NCBI RefSeq assembly: GCF_021568705.1
Contig: NZ_JAKGTH010000006.1
Coordinates: forward strand, 620,001-684,000
Reading direction: 5' to 3'
DNA: 64,000 nucleotides
DNA from: Gillisia lutea
GTDB lineage: Bacteria; Bacteroidota; Bacteroidia; Flavobacteriales; Flavobacteriaceae
Made by a program: the position numbers and the translations under genes. The notes under the pieces are model-generated. The model saw nothing but the letters and a program-made list of their open reading frames with translations. It was not told the origin of the DNA and did not search any database. Shown piece after piece: positions 2-25,954 of the stretch (positions within the stretch are counted from its first letter, which is position 1; each line of letters starts with the position of its first letter).

Positions 2-1441
2 GCTCCAAATTCAGGAACCCGACTTGTAACTTTAGACGATCTTACCCGTAGAGATGCTTCCAGAGATTTTGGAGGGAAGGAAAATGTGCCTACCAAAGCC
101 ATTACCATGGGAATTGGAACCATCTTTAAAGCACGGGAAATTATTTTAATGGCCTGGAGCAAGAAAAAAGCTCCCATTATTAAAAAAGCTGTAGAAGGAG
201 AAATCTCAGGAAATGTTCCTGCAACTTATTTGCAACTTTCTGATAATGTAGAATTCATTCTTGACACTGAAGCGGCTTCAGAACTTACCAGGTTTGATAT
301 TCCATGGTTGGTAAAAGACTGTATCTGGGATGAACAACTCATCAAAAAAGCGGTTATCTGGTTATCTTCAGAAGTAGACAAACCAATATTAAAGCTAACC
401 GATGAAGATTACAACAATCACGGGATGGCGCAATTGGTTACCGAAAAAGGACCTGCTTACAATATAAACATTCAGGTTTTCAATAAATTACAGCACAGTA
501 TTACAGGATGGCCGGGAGGAAAACCTAATTCTGATGACTCTCAACGACCTGAAAGAGCAGAGCCGGCTAAAAAACGCTCTCTCATCTTTTCTCCACATCC
601 CGATGATGATGTAATTTCTATGGGGGGAACTTTTATTCGATTGGTAGATCAGGGACATGATGTACATGTGGCCTATCAAACATCTGGGAACACCGCTGTT
701 TGGGATACCGATGTGCTTAGATATATGGAATTTGCAATAGATTTCGATAAAAGTATTGGAAAAGATACCAAGGAACTCACAGCTATTTATGAGAAAATGA
801 GAGTGTTCCTGGAGAAAAAACAGCCTAACGAGATCGATCTCCCGGAAATTAGAAATGTGAAAGCATTTATCCGAAAATCGGAAGCAATTGCAGGAGCCAG
901 ATATGCCGGACTTCAGGATGAGAATATCCATTTTATGGCGCTTCCATTCTATGAAACGGGGAAAACAGTTAAAAATCCGGTTACAGAAAAAGATGTGCAA
1001 TTAACCATGGAACTGCTTCAGCAAATAAAACCGCATCAAATATTTGCCGCGGGAGATTTTGCCGATCCTCATGGAACTCATATTGTTTGTTTCAGAATAA
1101 TTATTGAAGCCCTTACCAGACTCAGAAAAACCGAAGAATGGACAAAAGACTGCTGGTTATGGATGTATCGCGGAGCATGGCTCGAATTTGAAACTCATGA
1201 AATTGAAATGGCGGTGCCACTTTCTCCACAGGAAGTACAACGCAAGCGAAATGCAATTTTCCAACACCAGTCTCAAAAAGATAGACCAGTATTCCCTGGA
1301 GACGATGAGCGCGAATTCTGGGTAAGAGCGCAGGAAAGAAATCACGAGACTGCGGTGAATTATCACAACCTGGGTATGGCTAATTATGAAGCCATGGAAG
1401 CCTTTGTGCGCTGGAAATTTGATGAAAAAAATACCTTATAA
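2..1441 (+). CDS. nagB: Glucosamine-6-phosphate deaminase fused to PIG-L/LmbE deacetylase domain (5' end outside window)
   Basis: The frame is open from base 2, so this is the C-terminal part (about 480 residues) of a longer protein. The first 100 or so residues match the end of NagB, with the T-MGIGTI-A-E stretch and the VPATYLQLS segment. NagB turns glucosamine-6-phosphate into fructose-6-phosphate plus ammonia in the cytoplasm. A second domain follows, with the zinc-binding HPDDD motif near base 595 and DPHGTH near base 1068, typical of PIG-L/LmbE N-acetylglucosaminyl deacetylases. This fusion, about 640 residues, is usual in Bacteroidota. The NagB catalytic residues lie upstream and cannot be checked. 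The internal GTG at 86 is not the start. NagB completes amino-sugar catabolism started by the neighbouring murein genes. Confidence 0.9.
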   Translation, partial: APNSGTRLVTLDDLTRRDASRDFGGKENVPTKAITMGIGTIFKAREIILMAWSKKKAPIIKKAVEGEISGNVPATYLQLSDNVEFILDTEAASELTRFDIPWLVKDCIWDEQLIKKAVIWLSSEVDKPILKLTDEDYNNHGMAQLVTEKGPAYNINIQVFNKLQHSITGWPGGKPNSDDSQRPERAEPAKKRSLIFSPHPDDDVISMGGTFIRLVDQGHDVHVAYQTSGNTAVWDTDVLRYMEFAIDFDKSIGKDTKELTAIYEKMRVFLEKKQPNEIDLPEIRNVKAFIRKSEAIAGARYAGLQDENIHFMALPFYETGKTVKNPVTEKDVQLTMELLQQIKPHQIFAAGDFADPHGTHIVCFRIIIEALTRLRKTEEWTKDCWLWMYRGAWLEFETHEIEMAVPLSPQEVQRKRNAIFQHQSQKDRPVFPGDDEREFWVRAQERNHETAVNYHNLGMANYEAMEAFVRWKFDEKNTL

Positions 1442-1463
1442 GCTCACTTAATATATACATTAA

Positions 1464-2408
1464 ATGAAACATTTACCAAGTCTGGTTGCGATACTACTGC
1501 TTATTGCTCTTATTGCTTCCTGTTCATCTAATCCTTATTCTAAAACCAATAGGGTCTATAAAAAGCAAGCTAAGGAATACGGAAAACAGTTAAGTAAATT
1601 TCCCATAGAGCATAGTGAGAAAGAGGCTACCTTGAATTTTGGTGAATATGAAGTTGGTACCACCAATTTCAATTTAAGAAAGCCAAATTATGTTGTGATA
1701 CATCATACAGCGCAGGATTCGGTAGCCCAAACCTTGAAAACCTTTACTCTGGTGCGAACACAGGTAAGCTCGCATTATGTAATTGGAGATAATGGAGAGA
1801 TCTATCAAATGCTGAACGATTATTACAGAGCATGGCACGGAGGTTCCGGACAATGGGGAAATAATACCGATCTTAACTCTTCTTCCATAGGAATAGAATT
1901 AGACAACAATGGGTCGGAAGTGTTTTCTGAAGCGCAAATACAGAGTTTAATGCAACTGCTAAAAGTTTTAAAGGAAAAATATAATATCCCGGCAGCCAAT
2001 TTTATTGGACATTCGGATATTGCTCCTACTCGAAAAGTGGATCCTAACAGGAATTTCCCTTGGAAGCAACTTGCTGAAGAGGGCTACGGACTTTGGTATG
2101 ATGATATTCCTTTTGTAAGTGTGGAAGATACCCTTGTAACGGAGAAGGAAATAGTTAAAGAAGTACCGATTTTAGAAGAGCCTACGGTAGAAAATGATAG
2201 TATTTTTGAAGTGAAAGAACAAAAAGTAGTTTCACCGCTAGATGTTAGCCCGGAGATCGCTTTGAAGATCATTGGATACGACACCAGTAATATGGATGCA
2301 GCAATACGAGCCTTCAAACTTCATTTTATACAAACAGAGGTTAATGCCAATCTCACAGACAGTGACCTTAAGATTTTAAATAACTTATATAAGAAGTATT
2401 TGAAATAA
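1464..2408 (+). CDS. N-acetylmuramoyl-L-alanine amidase (Amidase_2), lipoprotein
   Basis: This 314-residue protein has a lipoprotein signal peptide ending in IASC. An Amidase_2/PGRP-like domain follows at about residues 75-205. Visible metal and active-site motifs are IHHTAQDS, HYVIGDNGEIYQM, AWHGG, IGIELDNNG and GHSDIAPTRKVDP, matching AmpD/AmiD-type zinc amidases. These enzymes cut the bond between N-acetylmuramic acid and L-alanine and release stem peptides from glycan strands. A C-terminal extension of about 100 residues, acidic and Val/Glu-rich, resembles nothing I know. The gene lies 22 bp after nagB on the same strand, probably in the same operon. Anchoring in the envelope would let it denude murein for the DigH-like glycosidase encoded at 9940. 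Confidence 0.88.
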   Translation: MKHLPSLVAILLLIALIASCSSNPYSKTNRVYKKQAKEYGKQLSKFPIEHSEKEATLNFGEYEVGTTNFNLRKPNYVVIHHTAQDSVAQTLKTFTLVRTQVSSHYVIGDNGEIYQMLNDYYRAWHGGSGQWGNNTDLNSSSIGIELDNNGSEVFSEAQIQSLMQLLKVLKEKYNIPAANFIGHSDIAPTRKVDPNRNFPWKQLAEEGYGLWYDDIPFVSVEDTLVTEKEIVKEVPILEEPTVENDSIFEVKEQKVVSPLDVSPEIALKIIGYDTSNMDAAIRAFKLHFIQTEVNANLTDSDLKILNNLYKKYLK

Positions 2409-2448
2409 ATCGCTTCACATCTAACCTCAGCTAAAAAAATTAGATATC

Positions 2449-4287
2449 ATGAAAAAACTGTTTTTTTTAAGTTCAATTTTTTATCTGTTCGTTCTAAATG
2501 TCACGCTGGCGCAGGAATTTAAATTTGCATTTGTATCAGATACACATATTGGAACAGAAACCGCTGCTGAAGATTTAGAAAGAACTGTGGTCGATATTAA
2601 TAATCAAAATGATATTGAATTTGTGGTGCTCACAGGGGATATCACCGAAATGGGTACCGATATCGAGCTGGCTGAGGCTAAAAAACTATTAGATAAGCTT
2701 GATGCTCCCTATTACATCGTTCCCGGAAATCACGATACAGGTTGGTCGGAGTCTGGCGGAGTGAGTTTTATCAAAGAGTTTGGGTACGATAAATTTGTGT
2801 TTGAGCACAAAGGCTACAAATTTATTGGATGCGCTTCTGGGCCCTACGTTCGAATGTCGGATGGGCACATTCCAAGAGATGCCGTAGTTTGGTTGGATGA
2901 AGTGCTTAATCAAACTCCTAAAGATCAGCCTATAGTGTTTGTAAACCATTATCCGCTAGACAACAGTCTGGATAATTGGTATGAAGTTATAGACAGACTA
3001 AAAGAATACAATACTCAGTTTGCAATTTGCGGACACGGACATAGAAATAAGGCCATGGATTTTGAAGGAATTCCGGCTACTATGAGCCGATCAAATTTAA
3101 GAGCGAAAGACACAATCGGAGGGTATAATATTGTAGAAGTTACTCCAAAAATAGCCAGCTTTAAGGAAAGGATTCCTGGAAAGGAAACACTGCCTGTTTG
3201 GAGAAGTATAGACTTAGGCAATAGAACATTTTCCAAAAATATTGACTTCGAACGGCCTACTTATGCCGTAAATGACAGTTTTCCAGAGGTTAAAAAAATA
3301 TGGAGCTATCACTCTAATGCCAACGTAATCTCTACTCCTGCCAATACAAAAGACTTGGTTATTTTCGGAAATAGCACCGGGCTTATTGAAGCACTATCAA
3401 TTAAAACCAGTGAAAAAGTATGGAATTATAAAACAGAAGGTGGAATATTCTCATCTCCGTCAATCTATAAGAATACTGTAATTCTGGGATCGGGTGATGG
3501 ATATATCTATTGTTTAAATTCTACCGATGGAAGCTTGGTTTGGAAGACTAAGACCGAAAAATCTGTTCTGGGTTCCCCATTAATTAACAACGGGATTATT
3601 TATATAGGTGGTAGTGATGGAAAATTTAGAGCTTTAGATGCCAATACAGGAAAAGAAATCTGGAATTTTAGTGAATTGAATGGACCTGTAGTGAGCACTC
3701 CCCTTATCCATAACGGGAAAGTGATTTTTGGAGCTTGGGATAAAAACCTTTACGCCTTATACCTTGAAGATGGGAGTTTGGCTTGGAAATGGTCGAATGG
3801 CTCTGCTAATAGAATGTTCTCCCCTGCCATGGTAATTCCAGTGGCATTTGATGATGTGATTTATATTGTAGCTCCAGACAGATATATTTCTGCAATTAAT
3901 GCTACTTCCGGAGAAACGCTATGGAGAAGCAATGAAGCTACTGTGCGAGAATCTATCGGTATTTCCGAAGATAATAGCCTTATTTATGGAAAAACCATGA
4001 ACGATGAGATAGTTGCTTTTAAAACCGGTAAAAATAAAGCAGAACTTGCCTGGAGAAAGGATTTTGGTTTTGGATATGAACATGTACCTTCTATGCTGAT
4101 AGAAAAAGGGAAGTCACTTTATTTCGGCACTAAAAATGGGGTTGTTTACAGTATAGATCCTACCACCCAAACCCACAATTGGTCATATAAAATAGATAAT
4201 TCTATGGTAAACACCGTTAATGTTCTGGATGAGCATCAACTGGTGGCTGCAACTATGGATGGTAAAATCGTAATGCTTTCCTGGTAA
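2449..4287 (+). CDS. Metallophosphoesterase with C-terminal PQQ-type beta-propeller, secreted
   Basis: The 612-residue protein has a Sec signal peptide (cleavage after LAQ near residue 22). A calcineurin-like phosphoesterase domain follows with all metal motifs: SDTH (30-33), GD (63-64), GNHD (93-96), NHYP near 166 and GHGH near 195. From about residue 285 to the end, repeats of the type G-Y-L-A/D-TG--W are typical of PQQ/BamB-like propeller blades. It lies 40 bp after the amidase on the same strand, so co-transcription is likely. The natural substrate is unknown; an extracytoplasmic phosphodiesterase whose propeller binds a polymer or partner protein fits. I cannot say whether it acts on murein, teichoic acid or nucleotides. 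A strong terminator follows it. Confidence 0.82.
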   Translation: MKKLFFLSSIFYLFVLNVTLAQEFKFAFVSDTHIGTETAAEDLERTVVDINNQNDIEFVVLTGDITEMGTDIELAEAKKLLDKLDAPYYIVPGNHDTGWSESGGVSFIKEFGYDKFVFEHKGYKFIGCASGPYVRMSDGHIPRDAVVWLDEVLNQTPKDQPIVFVNHYPLDNSLDNWYEVIDRLKEYNTQFAICGHGHRNKAMDFEGIPATMSRSNLRAKDTIGGYNIVEVTPKIASFKERIPGKETLPVWRSIDLGNRTFSKNIDFERPTYAVNDSFPEVKKIWSYHSNANVISTPANTKDLVIFGNSTGLIEALSIKTSEKVWNYKTEGGIFSSPSIYKNTVILGSGDGYIYCLNSTDGSLVWKTKTEKSVLGSPLINNGIIYIGGSDGKFRALDANTGKEIWNFSELNGPVVSTPLIHNGKVIFGAWDKNLYALYLEDGSLAWKWSNGSANRMFSPAMVIPVAFDDVIYIVAPDRYISAINATSGETLWRSNEATVRESIGISEDNSLIYGKTMNDEIVAFKTGKNKAELAWRKDFGFGYEHVPSMLIEKGKSLYFGTKNGVVYSIDPTTQTHNWSYKIDNSMVNTVNVLDEHQLVAATMDGKIVMLSW

Positions 4288-5609: not shown

Positions 5610-6656
5610 TTAAATTGAATGTTCTTTATATAATTGAGCTCCCGTTCCATTTCTATCAGGGAAATGAACTTTTTCATCGTAGATTTTCACGCCATCAGCA
5701 ATATCCGATTTTAATAGTAGCGGGCCGTCCATATCTACATAATCTAAAAGAGGTAAAAGTTGCGCTATTGCTGAGACTCCCACGGTAGATTCTGTCATAC
5801 AGCCTACCATCACTTTTAAACCTAATCTTCTAGCTTCTTCTACCATCCTTTTGCCGGGTGTTAGTCCGCCGCATTTGGTTAATTTAATATTTACACCATG
5901 GTAATAGGCTGCACACTTTTTAACATCACTCTCCACAATACAACTCTCATCTGCAATCAAAGGTAATACGGAATTCTTATACAAGAGTTTCATTCCTTCA
6001 ATATCATTTACCGCTAAAGGTTGCTCAATGAATTCTACATTTAAATCTTTAAGCTGATTGGCATTTTCTATCGCTTGCTCTGCAGTCCAGGCGGCATTTG
6101 CGTCTACTCTAAATACTGCATTGGTATGTTTTCTAAGCTCTTTTACAATTTTTACATCTTCATTAGTGCCTAATTTGATCTTATACAAAGGCCAAGGAAA
6201 TTCGCTTATCTTCTGAATCATCTTCTCCACCGTATCAATGCCTATGGTGTAATTTGTAAGAGGAATCTTATCCAGAGTGAGTCCCCACATCTTATAGAGC
6301 GGCAACCCGTTCCTTTTACCATGAAGATCGTGCATGGCAATATCTAAGGCACACTGTGCAAATGGGTTTTCCTTTAAATGTGGAGACGTAAGTTCCCAAA
6401 GCTCTTCGGGTGTGCTATCTATATTCTTCTGAACAAGTGGTTCCACCTTTTTCAAGGCAGCGATCATATTTTCAACAGTAACTCCATAATAGGAAGTGGC
6501 AGCAGCTTCGCCATAGCCTGTAAAATCTCCCTGAGTTAATGCCACGATAAGAGTAGGCTGAAAATCCCGAGAACCATAACTTATGGTAAAGGTGTTCTTT
6601 AATTCCAGGTTAAAAGTAAAGGTCTCTAACTTCATTTTATTGTTATTTGAAATCAT
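5610..6656 (-). CDS. L-Ala-D/L-Glu dipeptide epimerase (enolase superfamily)
   Basis: The protein has 348 residues, no signal peptide, and is therefore cytoplasmic. Enolase-superfamily residues are in place: KIK (Lys159, Lys161), metal ligands Asp185 (RVDAN), Glu211 (EQPL) and Asp236 (ADES), and the opposite-face lysine in KLTK (258-261). The C-terminal DMD motif (308-310) is the DxD signature that holds the amino group of dipeptides in known Ala-Glu epimerases, a strong sign of substrate. It converts L-Ala-D-Glu from murein into L-Ala-L-Glu, which ordinary dipeptidases can cut. The start overlaps the GH9 stop codon as ATGA, suggesting translational coupling. An in-frame ATG at 6635 (residue 8) is an equally good start. 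Confidence 0.9.
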   Translation of the reverse strand: MISNNNKMKLETFTFNLELKNTFTISYGSRDFQPTLIVALTQGDFTGYGEAAATSYYGVTVENMIAALKKVEPLVQKNIDSTPEELWELTSPHLKENPFAQCALDIAMHDLHGKRNGLPLYKMWGLTLDKIPLTNYTIGIDTVEKMIQKISEFPWPLYKIKLGTNEDVKIVKELRKHTNAVFRVDANAAWTAEQAIENANQLKDLNVEFIEQPLAVNDIEGMKLLYKNSVLPLIADESCIVESDVKKCAAYYHGVNIKLTKCGGLTPGKRMVEEARRLGLKVMVGCMTESTVGVSAIAQLLPLLDYVDMDGPLLLKSDIADGVKIYDEKVHFPDRNGTGAQLYKEHSI

Positions 6657-8467
6657 TTCTTCGCTTCATTTTGTGCAAAATATGCCATCATAAAAATAGC
6701 ATCTGCTGTTCCATCCATCGTAGGTTCGTTGGTAGAGTAATCTCCAAAATCATCGTGATACACCACATAATCATTTTGAAATTGAGCAAATTCATCAGCC
6801 TCCTTTAAATTGATCCCTTTAAGATCGTTATAGACCGAAGCATATACCGGTCCATCTACCAATCCACCAGGCACTTCCTCTCGGGTTAAGAACCACACAC
6901 TGGTATGTACATCTTGAGGATACTCGCCATTTCTAGGGATATTGGTAAACATTGAAGTTCCCCACGGATTTCTGCCTAAAAGCCAGTCTCTTTGTGCCAG
7001 CATAAAATCATGATACTCATTTGTTCCCGTCATTTCCTCTAGCAATAAGATTTGAGTGATCAAATTCACAGAGAGATTATTGGAACACCAGATAAACGGC
7101 ACTCCAACCTTGAAAGGATTTTGACTTCCCATGGCCAGACATTCATCAATTCCTTTTCTATAATATCCTGCAAGTTCCTTTTTCAGATCCTCGTTCACAA
7201 AAGGATACAGCACATAATGCCCAATATTAAAAAACGGGTAATAACGATAATGCTCGGCTGTTGACTTTCCCATCCAGGAAACTGAATTAGCCATTTTTGC
7301 ATAGGCGATGGCATCATTAAGGTAGTTAGGATCTTTAGTATTTGCATATAATTCAGCTGCCCCCCATTCCATATCATCTGCCCAGGTATCTTCATTATAT
7401 CTATAAGGAGCCCCGTAAGAATTTCCCTGTTGGAAACCTTCCTGCTCTTTTCCCATTTTATAAAGCTCGTTTGCGGCAAGGGCACATTTTTGTGCAAAAA
7501 CCGGATCATTCAGATCATGTTTCCAAATTCTGGCGGCAATTGCCATAGCTGCTGCCGATCTTCCGGCAAGATTTGCTATTCCTGTAGCTTTACTTTTGAA
7601 TTCTCTCAAGCCCTGAGGCTTTCCTGTAGCGAAATAAGCTACTCTATAAGAATTTGGTCCCCATCCGTAATCTGATGAATCTTTATCAGGCCATTTCATA
7701 CCCAAATGGTCTCTGTCATCGGCCACCTGATGAAATAATTCATTCTTACCACTATGCATTTTGTGTATCCAATCTAATCCCCATTTAGCTTCATCCAAAA
7801 CATCGGGAATACCGTTGGGTTTTAAATGTCCCAAAGCATCTACCTTATCAACAAATTTTTCAGGAGCCAGTTCATAGGCCTTCAGCATTCTGGCGGTTGC
7901 ATTGCTGGAAGTGATGAGGTATTTGAGCTGATCGCCGGCATCATGCCACCCGCCACTAACATCTATATAAGTAGAATCGGGCATTGGTCCATACATGCTT
8001 CTCCCATCCCGCTGGTGACATACCATATCCAGAAAGGGATTGTATCCACAGCGCTGCTGCCTCATAAACCCGATGAGGTCTTCGTGATAATTTTTATAGG
8101 AATACGCTTCTCCTATTCCGAAGTTGGAAGAAATTGCATCTTGTTTTTCAATTTTCAGATAATAGCTCCCTTTTATCTCCAAATCTGAAAAATCTAACTC
8201 ATAATAATACTTAAAATTCCCCCATCCCTTCATCTTCACAGGGTGAATATTTCCCTTGAATACGGGTTTATGGGAGGCAACTGAATATACTCTGAATTTG
8301 TCTTTTATTGGCGTTTCAGAAAAAGCTATTGCTACCTTTGTATCGGCTGAAAGATATCCCACCTGATTGAGTCTAATATAAACTTCATTTTCCTGTGCCT
8401 GCGTAAAATTACAGAAGTGTAAAAGCAGCAACAGCAATATTTGAAAAGATGGAAATGTAGACTTCAT
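6653..8467 (-). CDS. Glycoside hydrolase family 9, secreted
   Basis: This 604-residue protein has a signal peptide ending FTQAQ. An N-terminal Ig-like CelD_N domain (about 27-118) precedes an (alpha/alpha)6 GH9 barrel. The nucleophile-side motif GGWHDAGD is at 172-179 and the acid Glu (NEPTMDG) is near 581. GH9 is mostly cellulase, but the family also holds exo-beta-glucosaminidases. No cellulose-binding module is present, and every neighbour deals with murein or amino sugars. I infer an exo-acting enzyme on GlcNAc/GlcN-containing or modified murein glycan; activity on a beta-glucan cannot be excluded. It lies between the symporter (11 bp upstream) and the epimerase (4-nt overlap). Confidence 0.85.
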   Translation of the reverse strand: MKSTFPSFQILLLLLLHFCNFTQAQENEVYIRLNQVGYLSADTKVAIAFSETPIKDKFRVYSVASHKPVFKGNIHPVKMKGWGNFKYYYELDFSDLEIKGSYYLKIEKQDAISSNFGIGEAYSYKNYHEDLIGFMRQQRCGYNPFLDMVCHQRDGRSMYGPMPDSTYIDVSGGWHDAGDQLKYLITSSNATARMLKAYELAPEKFVDKVDALGHLKPNGIPDVLDEAKWGLDWIHKMHSGKNELFHQVADDRDHLGMKWPDKDSSDYGWGPNSYRVAYFATGKPQGLREFKSKATGIANLAGRSAAAMAIAARIWKHDLNDPVFAQKCALAANELYKMGKEQEGFQQGNSYGAPYRYNEDTWADDMEWGAAELYANTKDPNYLNDAIAYAKMANSVSWMGKSTAEHYRYYPFFNIGHYVLYPFVNEDLKKELAGYYRKGIDECLAMGSQNPFKVGVPFIWCSNNLSVNLITQILLLEEMTGTNEYHDFMLAQRDWLLGRNPWGTSMFTNIPRNGEYPQDVHTSVWFLTREEVPGGLVDGPVYASVYNDLKGINLKEADEFAQFQNDYVVYHDDFGDYSTNEPTMDGTADAIFMMAYFAQNEAKK

Positions 8468-9939: not shown

Positions 9940-11535
9940 TTATTTTAAAATAATTTCTTTGAATTCACTTTGCACACCATTTCGGTCTACAGCTGTAACG
10001 CCAATTTTACTTAACTTTTTCTTTTTCTCTCCAACTACATATTGCAGTTCTAAAGACATTTGAGAAGCATTCAGTATTTTGTAATCCCAAGCGCCATCGG
10101 CATATTTAAAGTATAATACCCATTTTGAGATTTCATCGGTATTTACATGAGTCCATGCAATTCTAAGTCGTTCTCCAAAAACTGAAGACCCAACAACAGG
10201 CGGTGTGGGTTGTTCTTTACTTAACCAAGGACTTGCGGGTACTAGGGCTTTCTTTTTATACGGCCCCTCTAAAAGTGCTTTCGATAAATTAGGGTTATTA
10301 ACAAGAGGGCCTATACTCCAGTGGATAGTACCTTTACTCTCGGGTAACATACCTCGGGTTATCATAATTTGATTAAGTGTTTCATCGGTATTTTGATCGT
10401 CTCCGCCAAGACCTACATTAATTCCCGGCCATAAATGACGATTCTTGGTATTCTCGCTCTCCCACCATCCCAATAATACCGGGAAACTCTGATTGAGCTG
10501 ATTGATCTTCCAATAAAGTTGCGGAGTAAAATAATCTACCCAGCCCTTGTTAAGCCAGAGTTTAGCATCGGCATACAACTCACTGTATTGATCCATCCCT
10601 GAAATAGACTCTGGATACCCCGGGCGCCATATTCCAAATGGACTTAAACCAAATTTCACAAATGGTTTTTCAGCTTTTATCTCTTTATAGATACGCTCAA
10701 TGAAAGTATTCACGCTTTCTCTACGCCAATCGCCTTTAGAAAGCTTTCCTCCTTTAGAAGTATATGCTGAATAGCTTTTAGCGTCAGGAAAATCTTCATT
10801 ATTATTATAAGAAGCATATGGGTAGAAATAATCATCGAAATGAACTCCGTCGATATCATATCGCTTCACAATATCCATTACTACTTCGGAAGTATGATCT
10901 TGAGTTCCTTTTTGAGAAGGATCCAGCCACCACATTCCATTTTTCAATTTAAATGCAAGCTCAGGATGGGTTTTAATAATTGATTGTTCGCTAATTTCTC
11001 CCCCAGTAGTATGATACGCACGATACGGATTTAACCATACATGCAATTCCAGTCCACGCTTATGAGCTGCTTCTGTCCAGAATTCTAAAGGGTCGTATAA
11101 CGGATTAGGGGCTGTACCCTGCTTTCCTGTTAGAAAATGTGACCATGGCTCCAAATCGCTATTGTAAAGCGCATCTGCTTGTGGTCGAACCTGGAAGATA
11201 ACCGCATTGAAATTATGAGCTTCCAAATAGTCTAAAAGCTTGATCGCTTCTTTTTGTTGCTCGGCAACTGGTAATCCCGATTTGCTGGGCCAGTTAATAT
11301 TAGCAACCGTAGCTACCCATGCCGCACGAAATTCTTCAATTTTAAGAGGGGCGTTTTCCTTAAATTCTTTTTCCTCTGGAACTGGTTTCTCTTCTTCTTT
11401 TGGGGATTCTACCTCAACTTCTACTTCTTTAGGAGAAACAGGTTTTTCCTCAACGGATGGTTTAGCTGTTTTACAAGAGTTGAATGTTAAAGCACATAGC
11501 ATTAACACCAAAATAGATTTTATTTTTAGCGACAT
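9940..11535 (-). CDS. DigH/YddW-like glycoside hydrolase (GHL10, DUF187), lipoprotein
   Basis: The 531-residue lipoprotein (lipobox FNSC, Cys21) has a Glu/Pro/Lys-rich linker at about 25-64. A GHL10 TIM-barrel domain follows at about 66-400 (motifs RAAWVATVANINWPS, FQVRPQADALY, HVWLNPYRAY and DGVHFDDYFYPY), then a C-terminal fibronectin-III-like domain from about 430. E. coli DigH (YddW), of this family, is reported to cut glycan strands already stripped of peptides. That fits the amidase at 1464, which makes such denuded strands. The gene lies 148 bp after susD and heads a tight block with the symporter, GH9, epimerase and endopeptidase. Confidence 0.82.
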   Translation of the reverse strand: MSLKIKSILVLMLCALTFNSCKTAKPSVEEKPVSPKEVEVEVESPKEEEKPVPEEKEFKENAPLKIEEFRAAWVATVANINWPSKSGLPVAEQQKEAIKLLDYLEAHNFNAVIFQVRPQADALYNSDLEPWSHFLTGKQGTAPNPLYDPLEFWTEAAHKRGLELHVWLNPYRAYHTTGGEISEQSIIKTHPELAFKLKNGMWWLDPSQKGTQDHTSEVVMDIVKRYDIDGVHFDDYFYPYASYNNNEDFPDAKSYSAYTSKGGKLSKGDWRRESVNTFIERIYKEIKAEKPFVKFGLSPFGIWRPGYPESISGMDQYSELYADAKLWLNKGWVDYFTPQLYWKINQLNQSFPVLLGWWESENTKNRHLWPGINVGLGGDDQNTDETLNQIMITRGMLPESKGTIHWSIGPLVNNPNLSKALLEGPYKKKALVPASPWLSKEQPTPPVVGSSVFGERLRIAWTHVNTDEISKWVLYFKYADGAWDYKILNASQMSLELQYVVGEKKKKLSKIGVTAVDRNGVQSEFKEIILK

Positions 11536-17318: not shown

Positions 17319-17328
17319 AATTTTATAG

Positions 17329-18945
17329 TTATTCTGGTTTGCTAAACCAAGTTTCGTAAGTGTGATAATCTTCTTCAAAGGCTCCAAGAACTTCTAAAGC
17401 TTCCTTGTTCCACATATATTCGGAATTATACCTTGGTCTTGCACGGTATGCAGGCTTTTCGTTATTGGTTATGTATAATGGATCTGGTAATTCAAAGCCT
17501 TTATAAACAGGCTCTGCTGCATCGACATCATAGTGATATCTTCTCATATCCGACCAAGTTTCGAAGAATCCCCATCCCCAAGTTGCTATATATTTTTGCA
17601 GCATGATTTTAGACAAGGTTAACTCCTGGGTTGATACCGGAAATAATTCTTCACTGCTTAAATAAGAAGCTCTTCTTGCATCAAACAAAGCAGGATCTGG
17701 TGCAAATTGCTTAGCAAAATCCATGTGTGCATTTACTCCTTCTTGATAAGCTGTAAGTGCAACATCCTTTTTATTTGAGATAAAGGCAGCTTCTGATTTT
17801 ATGAACTGTAATTCAGCATAGGTCATCAAAGGGAATCTAGCATCATTATTAAAGAAATAAATCTGTGGAGATGGTGTACTTCCTGAGTATCCTACTTCGT
17901 TCCAGAAATTCTTAGGAACCAGATCTGCTTCTGCTGAGGACCATTCATTAATTCCAACAACGGGAGAGATCCCTCTATATTTACCATCTGGAGATTGCGC
18001 CATCATGGCGGTTATTCTTGGATCTTTTAAATGCTCTTCACTGTTTTCTGCTAATGGATCTGCACCTATCAGGCTTGGATCAGTAAGCTCTGGGTTTGTT
18101 CCATCAAGTAAACCTATCATAAATTTTGTTTGACGATAACGCCCAATGTTTCCTCTACGTGGTCCGAAGAAATTCGTGTTAGAACTTACTGTGCCTTCAA
18201 AACCGATAGTAGCATCATCTTGATTTCCTGCCAATGCCATGTCAACGTATCCAATAACCTCATCGGCATTGTAAGAACTCTTATTTGTTAATCTGTGTGC
18301 ATTTATTGCAAGTAATCCATATGCAAATTTCTTCCACTTATCACGATCTCCACTATAGATAAGATCTGCTTGGCTTAATCCGGAATCTTCAGGACTTAAT
18401 CCATCAGTTCTTTCCAGATTTTCAATACCTAAAGCTAATAGTCTCTGAATTTCAGCATAAACTGCTGCTTGATCATCATAGTTAAAAACACGCTGATCTG
18501 AATTAAAAGCTTCAGAAACAATTACAGGTCCATGATAATCTGTTAGCATTTGCCATCCGTAAGCTCTTAGAATATATCCAACTCCCACGAAATCGTACTT
18601 TTCATTGATCATACCACTTTCTATCATATCAGATAGATTATAACCCATACTCCAGTAAACAGCTCGCCATAGTTGCGCATAGGAATCTGACAATGGGTTG
18701 TTATGTAAATTCAAAGAATAAGACTCTCCTGAAGAATATGCCCAGTTTTGGGTATAAAACCCGGTGAACCTTCCGTCCCACTGTATTGCCACAGCCAGTT
18801 CAGACTGGATTTGTGGCAGAAATAATTCGGGTTGCAAAAGTGCATCCGGACCATTTGGGTTTGTGTTTACGTCTAGATAATCGTCACAACCTGAAAAGGT
18901 AAGTGTGCCGGCAATCATTAAACATGTATATATTATTTTTTTCAT
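17329..18945 (-). CDS. SusD/RagB-family outer-membrane lipoprotein (pair 1)
   Basis: The 538-residue lipoprotein (lipobox FSGC, Cys20) has the DDYLDVNTNPNGPDAL opening that marks the SusD-like_2 subgroup. It continues with TPR-type helices (GLLAINAHRLTNK and LMTYAELQFIKSEAAF) and the C-terminal KIMLQKYIATWGWGFFETWSDMRR stretch. It captures substrate at the cell surface for the SusC encoded 12 bp upstream. Sequence divergence from the second SusD suggests that the two pairs take different fragments, for instance glycan versus peptide-bearing pieces. The ligand itself is not visible. Confidence 0.9.
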   Translation of the reverse strand: MKKIIYTCLMIAGTLTFSGCDDYLDVNTNPNGPDALLQPELFLPQIQSELAVAIQWDGRFTGFYTQNWAYSSGESYSLNLHNNPLSDSYAQLWRAVYWSMGYNLSDMIESGMINEKYDFVGVGYILRAYGWQMLTDYHGPVIVSEAFNSDQRVFNYDDQAAVYAEIQRLLALGIENLERTDGLSPEDSGLSQADLIYSGDRDKWKKFAYGLLAINAHRLTNKSSYNADEVIGYVDMALAGNQDDATIGFEGTVSSNTNFFGPRRGNIGRYRQTKFMIGLLDGTNPELTDPSLIGADPLAENSEEHLKDPRITAMMAQSPDGKYRGISPVVGINEWSSAEADLVPKNFWNEVGYSGSTPSPQIYFFNNDARFPLMTYAELQFIKSEAAFISNKKDVALTAYQEGVNAHMDFAKQFAPDPALFDARRASYLSSEELFPVSTQELTLSKIMLQKYIATWGWGFFETWSDMRRYHYDVDAAEPVYKGFELPDPLYITNNEKPAYRARPRYNSEYMWNKEALEVLGAFEEDYHTYETWFSKPE

Positions 18946-18957: not shown

Positions 18958-21900
18958 TTAAAATCCAACTCTCATTCCAATATTCAATCCTCTAGGCAAA
19001 GGGAAGTTACCATAGTCTAATCCTGCACCTCCGGCTCCACCTACTGCGGCAGAATTTCCATTTGCTACTGGGTCTAGACCAGAATAATTTGTTAACAAAA
19101 ATAGATCAGTACCTGTTACAAATACGCTAGCGGTTCTTAAAAATTTCGTTCTCTCTAAAACGCTTCCCGGGAAGTTATAGCTAAAAGTAACATCTCTTAA
19201 ACGTACCCAGTTAATATCCTTCTCAATGAAACTTTGATGAGGGTAAATTGAAGACCAGTAACTTGAATTACGATACAGGTCAATTGGGATATTGTTATCT
19301 GTTGGAGTTCCTGTGTTTTCGTTTCCGTCTTTTAAAACCCCGGTTACAATTCTAGGAGTTTCTCTATCTAAAGTTCTCTTACTTAAACCTCTTGTAGTTA
19401 AGTAGTGTTCCGTAGCATTGTAAACATCGCCACCTACACGGAAATCTAATAAAAAGTTAAGTGAAAAATCTTTATATCTAAATGTGTTTGTAAGCCCCAT
19501 TGTGAAGTCTGGGTTTCTATCTCCAACTACTATCCACTCACTAGTATCTAGAATAGGTAACCCGTTAGAAGGGTTAATCAATACTTCTCCCTGCTCGTTT
19601 CTTTCGAAATCGTATCCTGTAAAAGTGGTTAGAGACCCTCCAACTCTAGATCCTACACGTACATTTCCATATAACCAAGTATCGGAATTATAGAATTCTG
19701 ATACATCACCTGGAAGGCTTACCAGCTCACTCCAGTTCTTTGTATAGTTAGCCAAAATATCCCAGGAAAAGTTATCGGTTTCTATAGGAGTTGCATTTAA
19801 CTGAAGTTCTATTCCTTCATTTTGAATTTCACCGGCGTTAAACGTCATAAGAACAAATCCTGTAGCGTAGCTAAGTCTAAGATTCTGGACAATTTGATCT
19901 ACAGATTTCTTATTAAAATAAGTAGCATCTATACCTAACCTATTTTTAAATAACTTAAGTTCTATTCCATACTCATAAGAAGTTGTCATTTCAGGCTTCA
20001 AATCTAAACTCGGTCCGGTAAATCCGTATCTAAATCCACCACCTGTAGTAAGTGAATTGGTATAGAACGGGCGAATGCTGTATGGTCTTGCATCTTTTCC
20101 AACTTGTGCTACAGAGGCTCTTAACTTTCCATAAGATAATACATCTTTAATTCCTTTAAGAGCTTCTAATTCTGTGAAGATAAAGCTTAGACCTGCAGAT
20201 GGATAAAAGAAAGAATTATTCTTTTTAGGCAAGGTAGAACTCCAGTCATTTCTACCTGTTAAAGTAAGGTAAAGCATATTATCATAACTAGCATTTAAAC
20301 TAGCGAAAGCTCCAACCAGACGACGTTCGGTTAAATTGTTGAAAGCTCTATGTGTAGCTAAGTCGGTGTTATTGATTGACCATAGATCTGGTGCTTGAAA
20401 GTCTTGCCCCCCAGCGGCTGCACTAAAAGTGTTGTAATCGTAAACAGCACTACCAATTTTTATATCTGTTGTAATCTTATCATTAAAAAGTTTTGGAGGA
20501 GTGATCTGGGTATAGTACTGAAACGTAAGGTTTCTTGTAGTTACCAATGCCTGATCAAATATTCCACCGTAATCTTTTCCAGTGTTAGATTCAGGGTGTC
20601 TTACAATAGTATTTTTAGTTGTGAAATAATCTACACCCACTTGTCCTACAAATTTCAACCATTTTAATGGAGAAGCTGTAAGTTGTGTATTCAGTTTATA
20701 TCTATCAGTTAAAGAGTTGAAGATATTCTTATTTACATTAAAGAAAGGATTTTCTACAGCATTCGAATAGTCTGCATAATCTCTTCTCGTCCCCCCAGGA
20801 GTCAAATAATTACTGGCATCATCAGTAGAAGGCCAAAGCAATAGGTGTAGCAATGGTCCTCCAGAACCTCTGAAGGTCTGATCATTATCTGAACGGGTAT
20901 AATCGAAAGTTACATCAGCCGAAAGAAAGTCGTTAAACTCTGCTGTTATTGCAGAAGAGAGATTCAACTTTTCCAATCCTGTTGTTGGAACAAACCCTTC
21001 AGCATCTGTGTGAGATGCAGAAATTCTATACTGGCTCTTTTCACTACCTCCAGAAAATGAGATATTATGCTTTTGAGTATATGCATCTTGAAAGAAATTC
21101 TTTACGTTATCGTAAAACTGGGTTCCTTCAGCATAAGGCTCTCCAAAATAATACAATTCCTCATTTCCTTCGTTGGTATAGCCATTTGCTCCTCTATCAT
21201 AGGTTTGTTGAATATCTGGATATTCAACAATTCTATCTACTCTAAAGCTATTGCTATAATCTATACGGGCTTTACCCGCTTTTCCTCTTTTAGTTGTTAT
21301 AACCACTGCTCCAGATGCTGCTTCAATACCATATAATGCTGCTGCTTCCGGCCCTTTTAAAATAGTTACAGACTCAATATCCTCTGGGTTAATATCTGCT
21401 GCTCTGTTTGTGAAATCTACTCCTCTATTTTCGAAAGAAGTACCACTTACAGAAGATGCGAATATTGAAGTTGAAGTTGTGCTGTTGCTAATTGGCAAAC
21501 CATCTACAACAAATAAAGGTTGGTTACTACCGCTTAATGAACTTATCCCTCTAATTACTATAGAAGAAGATGCTCCAGGAAGTCCAGAAGTACTATTCAC
21601 TTCTACTCCCGCAACTCTACCCGCTAATCCATTCACAAAGTTTTCACGTTGTGTTTCTGCAATAGCAGCACCTTTTACCTCTGTAACAGAATATCCAAGT
21701 GCTTTTTTCTCTCTTTTAATACCAAGTGCAGTTACTACCACTTCATCTAATCCCTCTAAATTCTCTACCAGAGTTACATTAAAAGTGTTCTTGGTACCTA
21801 AGGTGAGTTCCTGAGTATCGAACCCTAAAGAGGAAATCACTAATATTGCCTCGCTATTGTCTGGTGCATTCAGAGCAAATTTACCATCCATGTCGGTCAC

Positions 21901-22050
21901 AGTACCTTTATTGGTGTTTTTGATATACACAGAAACCCCGGCAACCGGTATCCCTTCCTTATCTATGACCTTTCCAGTCACCATCCGCTCTTGTGCAAAT
22001 GCTTGCATCCCCAAAAAGCAGAGTAAAATTAAGAGTAGTCTTTTTTTCAT
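18958..22050 (-). CDS. SusC/RagA-family TonB-linked outer-membrane transporter (pair 1)
   Basis: The protein has 1030 residues and a signal peptide (AFAQ). A carboxypeptidase-regulatory-like domain (MVTGKVIDKEGIPVAGVSVY) is followed by the TonB-box region ending ALGIKREKKALGYSV, the plug with SGLPGASSSIVIRG, and a beta-barrel ending in GMRVGF. It forms the channel for the SusD/DUF4397 pair downstream. It stands 174 bp after murQ with no clear terminator between, so it may be read from the upstream transporter-hexosaminidase-murQ block as well as from its own leader. Confidence 0.93.
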   Translation of the reverse strand: MKKRLLLILLCFLGMQAFAQERMVTGKVIDKEGIPVAGVSVYIKNTNKGTVTDMDGKFALNAPDNSEAILVISSLGFDTQELTLGTKNTFNVTLVENLEGLDEVVVTALGIKREKKALGYSVTEVKGAAIAETQRENFVNGLAGRVAGVEVNSTSGLPGASSSIVIRGISSLSGSNQPLFVVDGLPISNSTTSTSIFASSVSGTSFENRGVDFTNRAADINPEDIESVTILKGPEAAALYGIEAASGAVVITTKRGKAGKARIDYSNSFRVDRIVEYPDIQQTYDRGANGYTNEGNEELYYFGEPYAEGTQFYDNVKNFFQDAYTQKHNISFSGGSEKSQYRISASHTDAEGFVPTTGLEKLNLSSAITAEFNDFLSADVTFDYTRSDNDQTFRGSGGPLLHLLLWPSTDDASNYLTPGGTRRDYADYSNAVENPFFNVNKNIFNSLTDRYKLNTQLTASPLKWLKFVGQVGVDYFTTKNTIVRHPESNTGKDYGGIFDQALVTTRNLTFQYYTQITPPKLFNDKITTDIKIGSAVYDYNTFSAAAGGQDFQAPDLWSINNTDLATHRAFNNLTERRLVGAFASLNASYDNMLYLTLTGRNDWSSTLPKKNNSFFYPSAGLSFIFTELEALKGIKDVLSYGKLRASVAQVGKDARPYSIRPFYTNSLTTGGGFRYGFTGPSLDLKPEMTTSYEYGIELKLFKNRLGIDATYFNKKSVDQIVQNLRLSYATGFVLMTFNAGEIQNEGIELQLNATPIETDNFSWDILANYTKNWSELVSLPGDVSEFYNSDTWLYGNVRVGSRVGGSLTTFTGYDFERNEQGEVLINPSNGLPILDTSEWIVVGDRNPDFTMGLTNTFRYKDFSLNFLLDFRVGGDVYNATEHYLTTRGLSKRTLDRETPRIVTGVLKDGNENTGTPTDNNIPIDLYRNSSYWSSIYPHQSFIEKDINWVRLRDVTFSYNFPGSVLERTKFLRTASVFVTGTDLFLLTNYSGLDPVANGNSAAVGGAGGAGLDYGNFPLPRGLNIGMRVGF

Positions 22051-22224: not shown

Positions 22225-23037
22225 TTAATCTTTATATTTTAATAATACAGTTCGCACGCTTTTATGTTCTTCTAATAATTTTGAAGCTAGTTTTTGATCT
22301 ACGTTCAACTCATCCATGATCATCTTTACACCCCGTTCTACCAGCTTTATATTTGAAAGTTGCATGTCTACCATTTTATTTCCCTTCACTCTTCCTAGCT
22401 TTATCATTACAGCTGTTGAGATCATGTTTAGAACTAATTTTTGAGCAGTCCCAGATTTCATCCTGGTACTTCCAGTAACAAACTCAGGACCTACTACTAC
22501 TTCTATAGGGTGTTCTACTGCCTGAGCTAATGGCGAATCAGGGTTGTTGGTTATACATCCTGTTGCAAGACCCATTTCTCTGGCTTTTTTAACTCCTCCA
22601 ATTGCATAGGGAGTAGTTCCCGATGCCGCAATACCAATTACCACATCATTAGAATTGATGTCGAATTTCTTCAAATCTTCCCATGCTTGTAGTGTGTCAT
22701 CTTCGGCATTTTCCACGGCCTTTCTTAGGGCAACATCTCCTCCGGCAATAACACCAATAACCACATCATCTGTAACACCAAAGGTCGGCGGGCATTCTGA
22801 AGCATCCAAAACACCCAACCTTCCACTGGTTCCTGCACCTATATAAAACAACCTACCATTATGAAACTTAATTTTTGAAACTATTACATCAACCAGTTCT
22901 TCAATATTTGGAATAACCTTACTGATAGCTTCCGGCACCTTTTTGTCTTCGTTGTTCATGTTAGACAACAACTCCTGGGTGCTCATCTTTTCAAGATCAG
23001 TATATAGAGAACTTTGTTCTGTGACTTTTTTAGACAT
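22225..23037 (-). CDS. murQ: N-acetylmuramic acid 6-phosphate etherase MurQ
   Basis: The 270-residue cytoplasmic SIS-domain protein carries the family signature GAGTSGRLGVLDASECPPTF (residues 67-86) and IAASGTTPYAIGG (136-148). Glu81 and Glu112 match the two catalytic glutamates of E. coli MurQ. It splits the lactyl ether of MurNAc-6-phosphate to give GlcNAc-6-phosphate and D-lactate, the step unique to murein sugars. It is a little shorter than the usual 300 residues. No MurNAc kinase is seen in the window, so phosphorylation must be encoded elsewhere. Its place between GH20 and susC is the strongest single argument for peptidoglycan as the substrate. Confidence 0.95.
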   Translation of the reverse strand: MSKKVTEQSSLYTDLEKMSTQELLSNMNNEDKKVPEAISKVIPNIEELVDVIVSKIKFHNGRLFYIGAGTSGRLGVLDASECPPTFGVTDDVVIGVIAGGDVALRKAVENAEDDTLQAWEDLKKFDINSNDVVIGIAASGTTPYAIGGVKKAREMGLATGCITNNPDSPLAQAVEHPIEVVVGPEFVTGSTRMKSGTAQKLVLNMISTAVMIKLGRVKGNKMVDMQLSNIKLVERGVKMIMDELNVDQKLASKLLEEHKSVRTVLLKYKD

Positions 23038-23087
23038 TTTATATTAAATCAATATTATTTAAAGGTTTAAAACCTTTTTAAACACTC

Positions 23088-24653: not shown

Positions 24654-24667
24654 AGTTCCTATACTTA

Positions 24668-25954
24668 TTATTTAGATTTTATTTTATGACCCTTAGCAGC
24701 AAAAAACAGCATATAAGCATATACAGGTATAATAATCCAATAAGCTTGCTGCGGGTTAAACATATCTGCCAGATACCCATATACCGGTGGTAAAATAGCT
24801 CCTCCTGCAATTGCCATTATTAATAGAGATGATCCTGTTTTTGTAAATTTTCCCAATCCTGCTATAGAAAGTGGCCATATTGCCGGCCAAACCAGCGCAT
24901 TTGCGAGACCTAAAAGGGAAATGAATAATACCGACACAAAACCTTCTGTAAAAATTGCTCCTAACCCTAAAACTATCCCCACTATTGCCGAGATGCTCAA
25001 GGCTTTTTCTTGTGATATATATTTTGGGATGGTAAAAATTCCAACTACATAACCTACTATCATGGCTATTAAAGTATAAGTAGTAAAGAATTTTGCAGTT
25101 GCAAAAGATATTCCCTGAGAAGCACCATAGCTAATTACAGTATCTCCTGCAATAACTTCTACCCCTACATATAAGAACAAGGCTAATACACCCAATAATA
25201 AATGAGGGAACTGAAAAATGCTCTTTTTATGTATGTTAGATTTTGCTACTTCTTCGTCTTCTGAATCGGTATCCACTTCCGGAAGGGATGAAAAATAAAT
25301 AAGTACAGCTAATATCACTAACACAGCCATCATAATTAAATATGGCACTATCACTCTTTCGGAAAGTGCATTTAGCGCTGCGACTTTATCGTTTTCGCTC
25401 ATCACTTTAAGGTTTTCTACCAGACTGTCTACATTCTTAAGGGCAATTGCACCAAGAACAATAGGAGCTAACGCTCCAGCAATCTTGTTACAAATTCCCA
25501 TGATGCTAATTCTTTTAGCAGCACTTTCTATAGGGCCTAAAATGGTAATGTACGGATTGGAAGCAGTTTGTAGAATTGCTAATCCTGTTCCTTGCACAAA
25601 TAAACCTATAAGAAAAAACTCGTAAGTTCGGGTAAAGGCGGCTGGCACAAATATCAACGCCCCAATGGCCATTACTAATAAGCCTAAAGACATCCCTTTT
25701 TTAAAACCGGTTACTTTTAATACCCAGGCAGAGGGCAATGCCATTACTAAATAAGAAATATAAAAAGCGAAGGTTACTAAATAAGACTCAAAGTTATTTA
25801 GCTCACAGGCAATTTTTAAATAAGGAATCAATACCGAATTTAGCCACGTAACAAATCCGAAGATAAAGAATAAGGCACCTATAATTATAATAGATCTGTT
25901 GGTTCCTGATTTTTGAACCTTAGCTGTAGAATTTGCTTCCAATTGACTTTCCAT
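24668..25954 (-). CDS. MFS sugar transporter, FucP/NagP-like
   Basis: This 428-residue inner-membrane protein has 12 predicted helices. The FucP-type opening (GALFFIFGFVTWLNSVLIPYLK) is followed by helix-loop motifs such as GLFVQGTGLAILQTASNPY. FucP relatives in Bacteroidota import fucose, glucose/galactose or, as NagP, N-acetylglucosamine with protons. Preceding GH20 and murQ by a few bases, it most likely takes in GlcNAc or MurNAc. It is the first gene of the - strand run and is preceded by a TAnnTTTG box at 26030-26037, giving a leader of about 70 bases. No regulator gene accompanies it. Confidence 0.85.
   Translation of the reverse strand: MESQLEANSTAKVQKSGTNRSIIIIGALFFIFGFVTWLNSVLIPYLKIACELNNFESYLVTFAFYISYLVMALPSAWVLKVTGFKKGMSLGLLVMAIGALIFVPAAFTRTYEFFLIGLFVQGTGLAILQTASNPYITILGPIESAAKRISIMGICNKIAGALAPIVLGAIALKNVDSLVENLKVMSENDKVAALNALSERVIVPYLIMMAVLVILAVLIYFSSLPEVDTDSEDEEVAKSNIHKKSIFQFPHLLLGVLALFLYVGVEVIAGDTVISYGASQGISFATAKFFTTYTLIAMIVGYVVGIFTIPKYISQEKALSISAIVGIVLGLGAIFTEGFVSVLFISLLGLANALVWPAIWPLSIAGLGKFTKTGSSLLIMAIAGGAILPPVYGYLADMFNPQQAYWIIIPVYAYMLFFAAKGHKIKSK

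What the first reader, a model, noticed from the sequence alone, without database searches (positions are those of the whole stretch)
2..25954. Candidate peptidoglycan-utilization locus with two SusCD pairs
Thirteen consecutive - strand genes plus three convergent + strand genes combine two SusC/SusD uptake systems with enzymes for each murein bond class. Amidase cuts MurNAc-L-Ala, NlpC/P60 cuts gamma-D-Glu-diamino acid, a DigH-like enzyme cuts denuded glycan, GH20 cuts GlcNAc ends, MurQ removes the lactyl ether, and NagB and the Ala-Glu epimerase feed products inward. Two permeases complete it. Polysaccharide utilization loci are normally tied to plant or algal glycans; one aimed at bacterial cell walls would let the cell feed on dead bacteria. 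Gene identities come from sequence; joint function is inference.
Basis: partly seen in the sequence, partly recalled or inferred. Interest (0 to 1): 0.82.

Follow-up and report, generated by a model that had tools for sequence, protein, structure and literature searches.

The report
Murein-salvage locus with swappable uptake genes
A flavobacterium carries a gene cluster that probably imports and digests pieces of bacterial cell wall; such clusters have been reported before, but here two different import systems sit side by side, and a supposed cellulase and a fused sugar enzyme look like further wall-digesting parts.

Summary
In detail: 13 minus-strand and 3 convergent plus-strand genes with two SusC/SusD pairs. 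The locus runs past the left edge: ROK regulator, NagX-like protein, NagZ-type GH3/beta-lactamase. A peptidoglycan role is well supported: MurQ, epimerase, YkfC-type peptidase, AmiD/AmpDh2-type amidase, Cwp19-type glycanase, no GH18 match in the genome. Feeding on dead bacteria is not shown. In 13 loci at the same LepA site the place after murQ holds no SusCD in 5, pair 1 in 3, pair 2 in 2, a divergent SusC in 2, and both pairs only here; other parts of the core vary too. A two-SusCD murein locus is published (PMC10199937), so this is a variant of a known kind. Further points: no NagA passes its cut-off, while NagB is fused to a PIG-L deacetylase (101 of 125 genomes with the fusion have no NagA over the cut-off); the GH9 belongs to a subfamily fused or adjacent to a polysaccharide deacetylase in 34 of 44 loci, which suggests amino-sugar glycan rather than cellulose, though this window's GH9 has no such neighbour.

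The parts
2..1441 (+). 3' part of a 645-aa NagB (glucosamine-6-phosphate deaminase) fused to a PIG-L deacetylase domain; start lies 496 nt left of the window
   Evidence: NF002557 797 bits, PF02585 60 bits; full frame; HPDD and DPHxTH motifs invariant in 5 sequences
1464..2408 (+). Amidase_2 lipoprotein, AmiD/AmpDh2 type
   Evidence: PF01510 119.5 bits; nearest solved AmpDh2 7e-29, AmiD 1e-25; lipobox with no acidic residue right after the Cys in window and 4 relatives
2449..4287 (+). calcineurin-like phosphoesterase + PQQ-type beta-propeller, exported
   Evidence: PF00149, PF13360; 2 of 149 family genomes at 1e-60, own included; in one gene row with murQ in 4 Sphingobacterium loci and in L189 and L199
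4371..5597 (-). SH3 + NlpC/P60 lipoprotein, YkfC type
   Evidence: PF00877, PF08239; nearest solved 3npf/3pvq, named dipeptidyl-peptidase VI, 4.6e-80
5610..6656 (-). L-Ala-D/L-Glu (dipeptide) epimerase
   Evidence: DgcA and L-Ala-D/L-Glu epimerase models, all below their cut-offs; nearest solved 3iji (deposited as muconate cycloisomerase) 1.7e-62, then named dipeptide epimerases
6653..8467 (-). exported GH9 of a subfamily coupled to CE4 polysaccharide deacetylases elsewhere
   Evidence: PF00759 251 bits
8479..9927 (-). sodium:solute symporter (SSS), candidate importer of MurNAc or another breakdown product
   Evidence: PF00474 100 bits; SSS gene in the flank of 25 of 80 MurQ loci
9940..11535 (-). 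GHL10 lipoprotein (DUF187), Cwp19/DigH-like glycanase
   Evidence: PF02638 211 bits; only solved match at E<=0.001 Cwp19, 7.2e-71
11684..13183 (-). SusD of pair 1
   Evidence: PF12771 186 bits; 69-70% identical to SusD in G085, L037, L046
13189..16254 (-). SusC of pair 1
   Evidence: TIGR04056 669 bits; 71-73% identical to SusC in G085, L037, L046
16527..17387 (-). DUF4397 lipoprotein, travels with pair 2; probable surface binding protein (inferred)
   Evidence: PF14344 59 bits; same place in G096 and G028; acidic residues after the lipobox Cys in all three
17329..18945 (-). SusD of pair 2
   Evidence: PF12771 135 bits; 75% identical in G028, 90% in G096
18958..22050 (-). SusC of pair 2
   Evidence: TIGR04056 669 bits; 80% identical in G028, 91% in G096
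22225..23037 (-). [quoted passage not shown]
   Evidence: TIGR00274 323 bits, cut-off 302; the only match over the NF003915 cut-off in the genome
23088..24653 (-). GH20 beta-N-acetylhexosaminidase, exported
   Evidence: PF00728 267 bits; nearest solved 4c7d hexosaminidase 3.1e-88. A lipobox-like LVGC is seen by eye; the script's pattern did not take it and most relatives show other starts
24668..25954 (-). NagP-like MFS permease (GlcNAc)
   Evidence: NF046060 405 bits, below its cut-off 625; TIGR01272 gluP 310 bits, over its cut-off 202.55
26204..26230 (-). 27-nt motif upstream of nagP, shared with the ROK gene's promoter region about 1950 nt left of the window; candidate operator
   Evidence: motif built from nine hand-picked sites of other genomes: 29.2 here, 23.8 at the ROK gene, next best 9.5 in 84 kb; partial on cross-training

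Best explanation
A murein-salvage locus. SusC/D pairs 1 and 2 (with DUF4397) bind and import peptidoglycan fragments, each probably a different fragment class. In the periplasm GHL10 cuts glycan, the Amidase_2 lipoprotein removes stem peptides, and GH20, NagZ-type GH3 and GH9 trim the ends: GH20 and GH3 take GlcNAc, GH9 takes N-deacetylated residues. The YkfC-type NlpC/P60 protein releases L-Ala-D-Glu, which the epimerase converts in the cytoplasm. NagP brings in GlcNAc and the SSS symporter MurNAc. A kinase (BadF type or AnmK) makes the 6-phosphates, MurQ removes D-lactate, and the NagB-PIG-L fusion does both deacetylation and deamination, since no NagA was found. A ROK regulator controls at least the nagP unit and the ROK-nagB-amidase unit. 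Shown: gene families, neighbourhood conservation, no NagA or GH18 match at the stated thresholds. Inferred: every substrate, direction of transport, GH9 and PIG-L activities, regulator target.
For: Family and nearest-structure matches. nagP-murQ at the LepA site in 13 loci, followed by GHL10 and the epimerase in the 12 whose stretch reaches that far. Each SusCD pair is found alone after murQ in other genomes, so both belong to the locus; they are only 38.6% (SusC) and 26.6% (SusD) alike, so not a recent duplication. No GH18 match. AnmK, NamZ and a weak BadF-type kinase present. NagA best match 35.7 bits against a cut-off of 225.65; in 296 phylum genomes 24 of 125 with the fusion have NagA over the cut-off, against 17 of 27 with what looks like unfused NagB. 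GH9-CE4 coupling in 34 of 44 loci. Motif shared by two promoter regions.
Against: 5 of 13 loci have no SusCD after murQ. The amidase-NagB-ROK block is not in the stretch held for L034/G006 (40 kb) or L033, and SSS is missing in L033, L034 and G085, so the core itself varies. No cross-link endopeptidase recognised. GH9 is closest by sequence and by model to endoglucanases, its model has poor active-site loops, and neither this window's GH9 nor its relatives L166-L168 has a CE4 beside it. Over all 296 genomes NagA is not rarer with the fusion (24 of 125 against 20 of 171). No motif site among the top 15 lies before susC1, susC2 or GHL10, and one of 200 random sets reached 24.2, above the ROK site. 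The kinase match is 31.4 bits, 31.9 with its neighbours, at a cut-off of 31.5. No expression or binding data exist here.
Confidence: 0.62

Rival explanations
1. Own-wall recycling. The core recovers fragments shed from the cell's own murein; the SusCD pairs only recapture what leaks out.
For: No SusCD after murQ in 5 of 13 loci at this site; AnmK present; MurQ-type matches in 147 of 149 family genomes at E<=0.001, a count that includes weak SIS-domain matches.
Against: Two intact, distinct SusC/D pairs are kept in the window; SusCs of at least three kinds occupy the slot in different genomes.
Confidence: 0.22
2. Chitin or chitosan locus: GH20, NagP, NagB, two SusCD pairs and GH9 take up chito-oligosaccharides.
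For: GH20, NagP-like permease, NagB; the GH9 subfamily is coupled to deacetylases and once lies near a GH2 with an exo-glucosaminidase Ig domain (L174). Recalled: chitin loci of flavobacteria have a similar transporter set.
Against: No GH18 match in the genome (GH19 not tested). Amidase, YkfC-type peptidase, epimerase and MurQ have no use on chitin.
Confidence: 0.08
3. Two unrelated neighbouring systems: murein recycling genes plus SusCD and GH9 for a plant- or algal-type beta-glucan.
For: GH9 nearest to endoglucanases; gaps of 174, 272 and 148 nt split the minus strand into possible separate units (coordinates); no shared motif before susC1 or susC2.
Against: Each SusCD pair recurs after murQ beside the same murein genes; this GH9 subfamily is in one gene row with murQ in G028, L036, G012, L040, L048, L069, L189 and L199. 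All but G028, G012, L189 and L199 of these were found through MurQ.
Confidence: 0.08

Closest known systems
Two-SusCD murein locus of the Urechidicola mussel symbiont (PMC10199937, section 17 with the Fig. 5 legend read)
   Same: Two susCD pairs with murQ, nagB, amidase, Ala-Glu epimerase, a sodium co-transporter, an MFS permease and a GH3; [quoted passage not shown]
   Different: That one has DacA, GH18, GH171, an AmpG-annotated permease and a DeoR regulator; here ROK, GH20, GH9, GHL10, NlpC/P60, DUF4397 and metallophosphoesterase-PQQ. The paper lists 'GH10'; whether that means GHL10 was not checked
Tannerella forsythia murTKQ (PMC5790795, passages seen)
   Same: Sodium-symporter-family MurNAc transporter, kinase and MurQ for external MurNAc
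   Different: No kinase gene in this locus; no SusCD in the operon in the passages seen; that organism needs external MurNAc
Vibrio-type GH9 exo-glucosaminidases VC0615 and PBPRA0520 (PMC6096475, outline and passages seen)
   Same: GH9 enzyme in an amino-sugar operon
   Different: Window GH9 is outside that subgroup (66.9 bits for 6gdt against 194.6 for 3x17 with the subfamily profile)
YkfC/epimerase murein-peptide pathway (recalled; nearest structures)
   Same: NlpC/P60 with SH3 domains next to a dipeptide epimerase
   Different: Here embedded in a SusCD locus

Membership tests
Polysaccharide utilization locus (PUL) | adjacent susC and susD pair | tested here: met
   two pairs
Polysaccharide utilization locus (PUL) | co-located degradative enzymes | tested here: met
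   GH20, GH9, GHL10, amidase, NlpC/P60
Polysaccharide utilization locus (PUL) | linked regulator and coordinated expression | tested here: inconclusive
   ROK gene linked; shared motif at two promoter regions but not before susC1, susC2 or GHL10
Polysaccharide utilization locus (PUL) | induction by and growth on the glycan | not testable with these tools
   needs culture
MurQ-dependent MurNAc catabolism | MurQ etherase | tested here: met
   TIGR00274 over cut-off
MurQ-dependent MurNAc catabolism | source of MurNAc-6-phosphate (MurK or AnmK) | tested here: met
   AnmK 224.7 bits on another contig; a MurK is unproven: BadF-type 31.9 bits at cut-off 31.5
MurQ-dependent MurNAc catabolism | NagA for GlcNAc-6-phosphate | tested here: not met
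   best 35.7 bits against cut-off 225.65; PIG-L proposed as substitute, untested
Chitin PUL | GH18 chitinase | tested here: not met
   no PF00704 match in the genome at E<=0.001; GH19 not tested
GH9 exo-glucosaminidase (Vibrio subgroup) | membership of the subgroup by sequence or fold | tested here: not met
   endoglucanases rank above
GH9 exo-glucosaminidase (Vibrio subgroup) | loops closing the -2 subsite | tested here: inconclusive
   active-site loops of the model below pLDDT 50

The most novel reading that the evidence does not exclude
Bacteroidota have an undescribed branch of murein digestion. A GH9 subfamily, usually fused or adjacent to a PdaA-like deacetylase, clears N-deacetylated (lysozyme-resistant type) wall glycan that GH20 and NagZ cannot cut, and a NagB-PIG-L fusion replaces NagA so that GlcNAc-6-phosphate goes to fructose-6-phosphate on one polypeptide. 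The SusCD pairs are exchangeable import cassettes dropped into a recycling core, turning recycling into feeding.
Probability: 0.35. Interest if true: 0.68.

Novelty: new variant of a known kind. Interest (0 to 1): 0.5.

Why it matters
Wall debris is a nitrogen-rich food source, yet a PUL survey found the lysozyme-type murein families GH23, GH24, GH25 and GH73 under-represented in PULs, though present in some (PMC6499787, passages seen). Loci at the same site with no, one or two uptake pairs give a natural series for asking how recycling becomes feeding. The NagA gap and the GH9-deacetylase pairing would affect how GlcNAc pathways and 'cellulases' are annotated across the phylum.

Tried and rejected
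AlphaFold of the NagB-PIG-L fusion gave pLDDT 49.7 and was not used. The GH9 model (70.5) and its fold search do not settle exo or endo action. A simple Bacteroidota promoter pattern gave one match, in the ROK-NagX gap; not used. The motif trained on ROK sites alone ranks the nagP site only joint second, tied with a place at 28276; trained on nagP sites alone, the ROK site is not in the top five, so the operator claim is moderate. In loci G006 and G109 no site above 13 was seen and in L033 only 14.2. NlpC/P60 surface export was considered from the residues after the lipobox, but relatives vary: left open. Fisher test: the unfused group was set by hand as matches below the cut-off with E<=1e-60 (27 genomes), by score and not by looking at each gene; genomes are not independent; at most 6 or 3 first-look candidates per genome were scored. 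With a laxer NagA line of 150 bits the counts are 30 of 125 and 18 of 27.

Literature: ten searches, open-licence papers only. I saw listings, plus passages of PMC6499787, PMC4829426, PMC10199937, PMC6987092, PMC5790795, PMC5583593, PMC6096475, PMC11382707, PMC10877868 and PMC11345257, and section 17 of PMC10199937; no paper was read whole. Of the nine papers listed I opened three; PMC10199937 was the only one of them with a murQ-SusCD locus. None of the six and none of the four (GH9 with deacetylase terms) was opened; their titles and abstract openings do not bear on this. One search (NagB with PIG-L terms) found no paper.
Full report
OBSERVATION. The gene list holds. The window is G000:C6:620001-684000 of a 3.18-Mb genome, 99.99% complete. 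A relative in the same family group, G006, is the contig of Salinimicrobium catena (L034, same place), so the family is that of Salinimicrobium, the Flavobacteriaceae (recalled). The 20 kb to the left (L113) show that the locus continues: the NagB-PIG-L gene starts 496 nt left of the window; before it on the same strand is a ROK regulator (-1813 to -539), and on the minus strand a NagX-like protein with the HGSNAT domain (-3244 to -2117) and a 982-aa GH3-beta-lactamase protein (-6228 to -3280). Its GH3 part matches solved N-acetylglucosaminidases, 6k5j and YbbD/NagZ among them.

ENZYMES. NlpC/P60 is nearest to 3npf/3pvq (4.6e-80), the epimerase to 3iji (1.7e-62, deposited as muconate cycloisomerase, then to named dipeptide epimerases), GHL10 to Cwp19 (7.2e-71, its only match), the amidase to AmpDh2 and AmiD, GH20 to hexosaminidase 4c7d (3.1e-88). 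That 3npf-type enzymes need a free L-Ala end, that 3iji acts on L-Ala-D-Glu and that Cwp19 is a lytic transglycosylase is recalled. The genome has no GH18 match at E<=0.001, one NamZ, one AnmK and a borderline BadF-type kinase, all on other contigs.

A SWAPPABLE UPTAKE SLOT. I annotated relatives by my own ORF calls and phmmer against the window proteins. Thirteen loci lie at the same LepA-nagP-murQ site: the window, G096, G028, G085 and named L033 (Gillisia hiemivivida), L034 (Salinimicrobium catena), L036, L037, L039, L042, L046 (Salegentibacter), L041, L049 (Christiangramia). After murQ: no SusCD in 5 (L033, L034, L036, L039, L042; L036 has a ROK-like gene and a second GH20 there); pair 1 in 3 (G085, L037, L046; L046 also has a further SusC-like gene, 29% identical, and its stretch ends before GHL10); pair 2 in 2 (G096, G028, with DUF4397); a SusC of 25-27% identity in 2 (L041, L049); both pairs only in the window. 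G085 has one more distant SusC-like gene (53 bits) beyond NlpC/P60. The window's SusCs are 38.6% identical and its SusDs 26.6%. So both pairs belong here, and uptake looks like an add-on.

The rest is not fixed either (n is the number of the 13 loci whose stretch reaches the gene's place, window counted): nagP and murQ 13 of 13; GHL10 and epimerase 12 of 12; GH20 10 of 13 (not G096, L033, L034); SSS 9 of 12 (not G085, L033, L034); GH9 3 of 12 (window, G028, L036); the metallophosphoesterase-PQQ gene in the window alone. The amidase-NagB-ROK block is seen in the window, G096, G028, G085 and L039, is absent from the 40 kb of G006/L034, where GH3 follows NlpC/P60, and L033 looks the same. Five of the loci are Salegentibacter and two Christiangramia, so they are not independent. 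Over all 80 named MurQ loci, 17 have a SusC of 100 bits or more in the flank held, 25 an SSS gene, and 42 none of the linked genes at my thresholds; flanks are at most 10 kb and some contigs end sooner.

NAGB WITHOUT NAGA. The own genome's best NagA match is 35.7 bits against a cut-off of 225.65, with all 14 candidates scored. In 296 phylum genomes NagA is over the cut-off in 44 and the NagB-PIG-L fusion in 125; both in 24, so 101 of 125 have no NagA over the cut-off. Among 27 genomes that by score have unfused NagB (my threshold) 17 have NagA; Fisher p=1.4e-5, not corrected for kinship. Against: over all genomes NagA is not rarer with the fusion (24 of 125, 20 of 171), and 24 have both. The PIG-L motifs HPDD and DPHxTH are invariant in five sequences; the domain's only solved matches at E<=0.001 are diacetylchitobiose deacetylases and PH0499, over about 50 residues (1.2e-4 and 6.1e-4). 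The residue before GH in the NagB motif is T in the window and two relatives and N in the other two; what that means for activity was not tested.

GH9 IS PROBABLY NOT A CELLULASE. In 149 family genomes 8 have this GH9 at 1e-60; murQ lies within about 10 kb in 3 (own, G028, G012; the own gene is 14 kb from murQ; places). In 392 phylum genomes 46 have it at 1e-80. I fetched 39 of its 49 hit places: 6 weak ones (3.7e-84 to 9.9e-81) and the window were left out, 3 were already held. With these 3 and two more family loci, of 44 GH9 genes 25 are fused to a CE4 domain, 9 have CE4 in the next gene, 10 neither (one CE4 reference, E<=1e-6). Not in that count: window, G028 and L036 without CE4 beside GH9, and G012, L040, L048, L069 fused. 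Pfam confirms PF01522 in six fusions and six separate genes. The deacetylase half is nearest to 2j13 (named polysaccharide deacetylase) and PdaA, with PgdA-type peptidoglycan deacetylases and a predicted chitin deacetylase further down. In L189 and L199, of one genus, the order is SusC-SusD-MetalloPQQ-GH9-CE4-MurQ-SSS, with DUF4623 and GHL10 also in L189; three Sphingobacterium loci have MetalloPQQ-GH9-MurQ-SSS and a fourth lacks GH9. L198 has GHL10, GH9 and NagA in a row; L176 has GH9, CE4, a NagX-like and an amidohydrolase gene. By chance murQ would fall in a 20-kb window about 0.5% of the time (my arithmetic). Against: nearest solved structures are endoglucanases, and the window's own GH9 and its relatives L166-L168 have no CE4 neighbour. 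Exo-acting GH9 glucosaminidases are known in Vibrio (PMC6096475), but this is not that subgroup.

REGULATION. A 27-nt motif built from nine sites that I picked by eye in other genomes (six nagP, three ROK promoter regions) hits two places in the window plus 20 kb: upstream of nagP (29.2) and of the ROK gene (23.8); next best 9.5. In 200 random sets of 1,423 bp with the composition of the intergenic stretches the best score had a median of 8.8, a 95% point of 15.9 and a maximum of 24.2, just above the ROK site. Cross-training is only partly convincing. None of the top 15 places lies before either susC or GHL10.

KNOWN AND NEW. The 2023 Urechidicola locus (PMC10199937) already joins two SusCD pairs with murein genes; T. 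forsythia MurTKQ imports MurNAc (PMC5790795). I found no paper on the following in the searches named in Tried and rejected, which cover only open-licence papers: NagB-PIG-L in place of NagA and a GH9-deacetylase pairing with MurQ. For the optional SusCD slot no search of its own was made.

Noticed in passing
L120:4527-7442: FAD-linked oxidase with 4Fe-4S domains in a second kind of MurQ locus (G109; same-sized gene in G021); could oxidise the D-lactate that MurQ releases.
   Followed up: partly
L119:16930-19224: DUF6259 protein between the SSS gene and murQ in G109; a similar-sized gene at that place in G021.
   Followed up: partly
L040, L048, L069, L101: Sphingobacterium loci with a metallophosphoesterase-PQQ gene directly before GH9 or murQ; a role in removing wall teichoic acid is a guess.
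   Followed up: partly
L174:5087-7723: GH2 with an exo-glucosaminidase Ig domain near a GH9, NagP-like and ROK genes; a NagA over the cut-off lies in the same 20 kb.
   Followed up: no
L079: Contig labelled Bifidobacterium breve MAG carries a MurQ 69% identical to the window's, with neighbours like those in Flavobacterium loci; probably contamination.
   Followed up: no
window 32715-33578: YtnP-like lactonase family match (178 bits, below cut-off 425).
   Followed up: no
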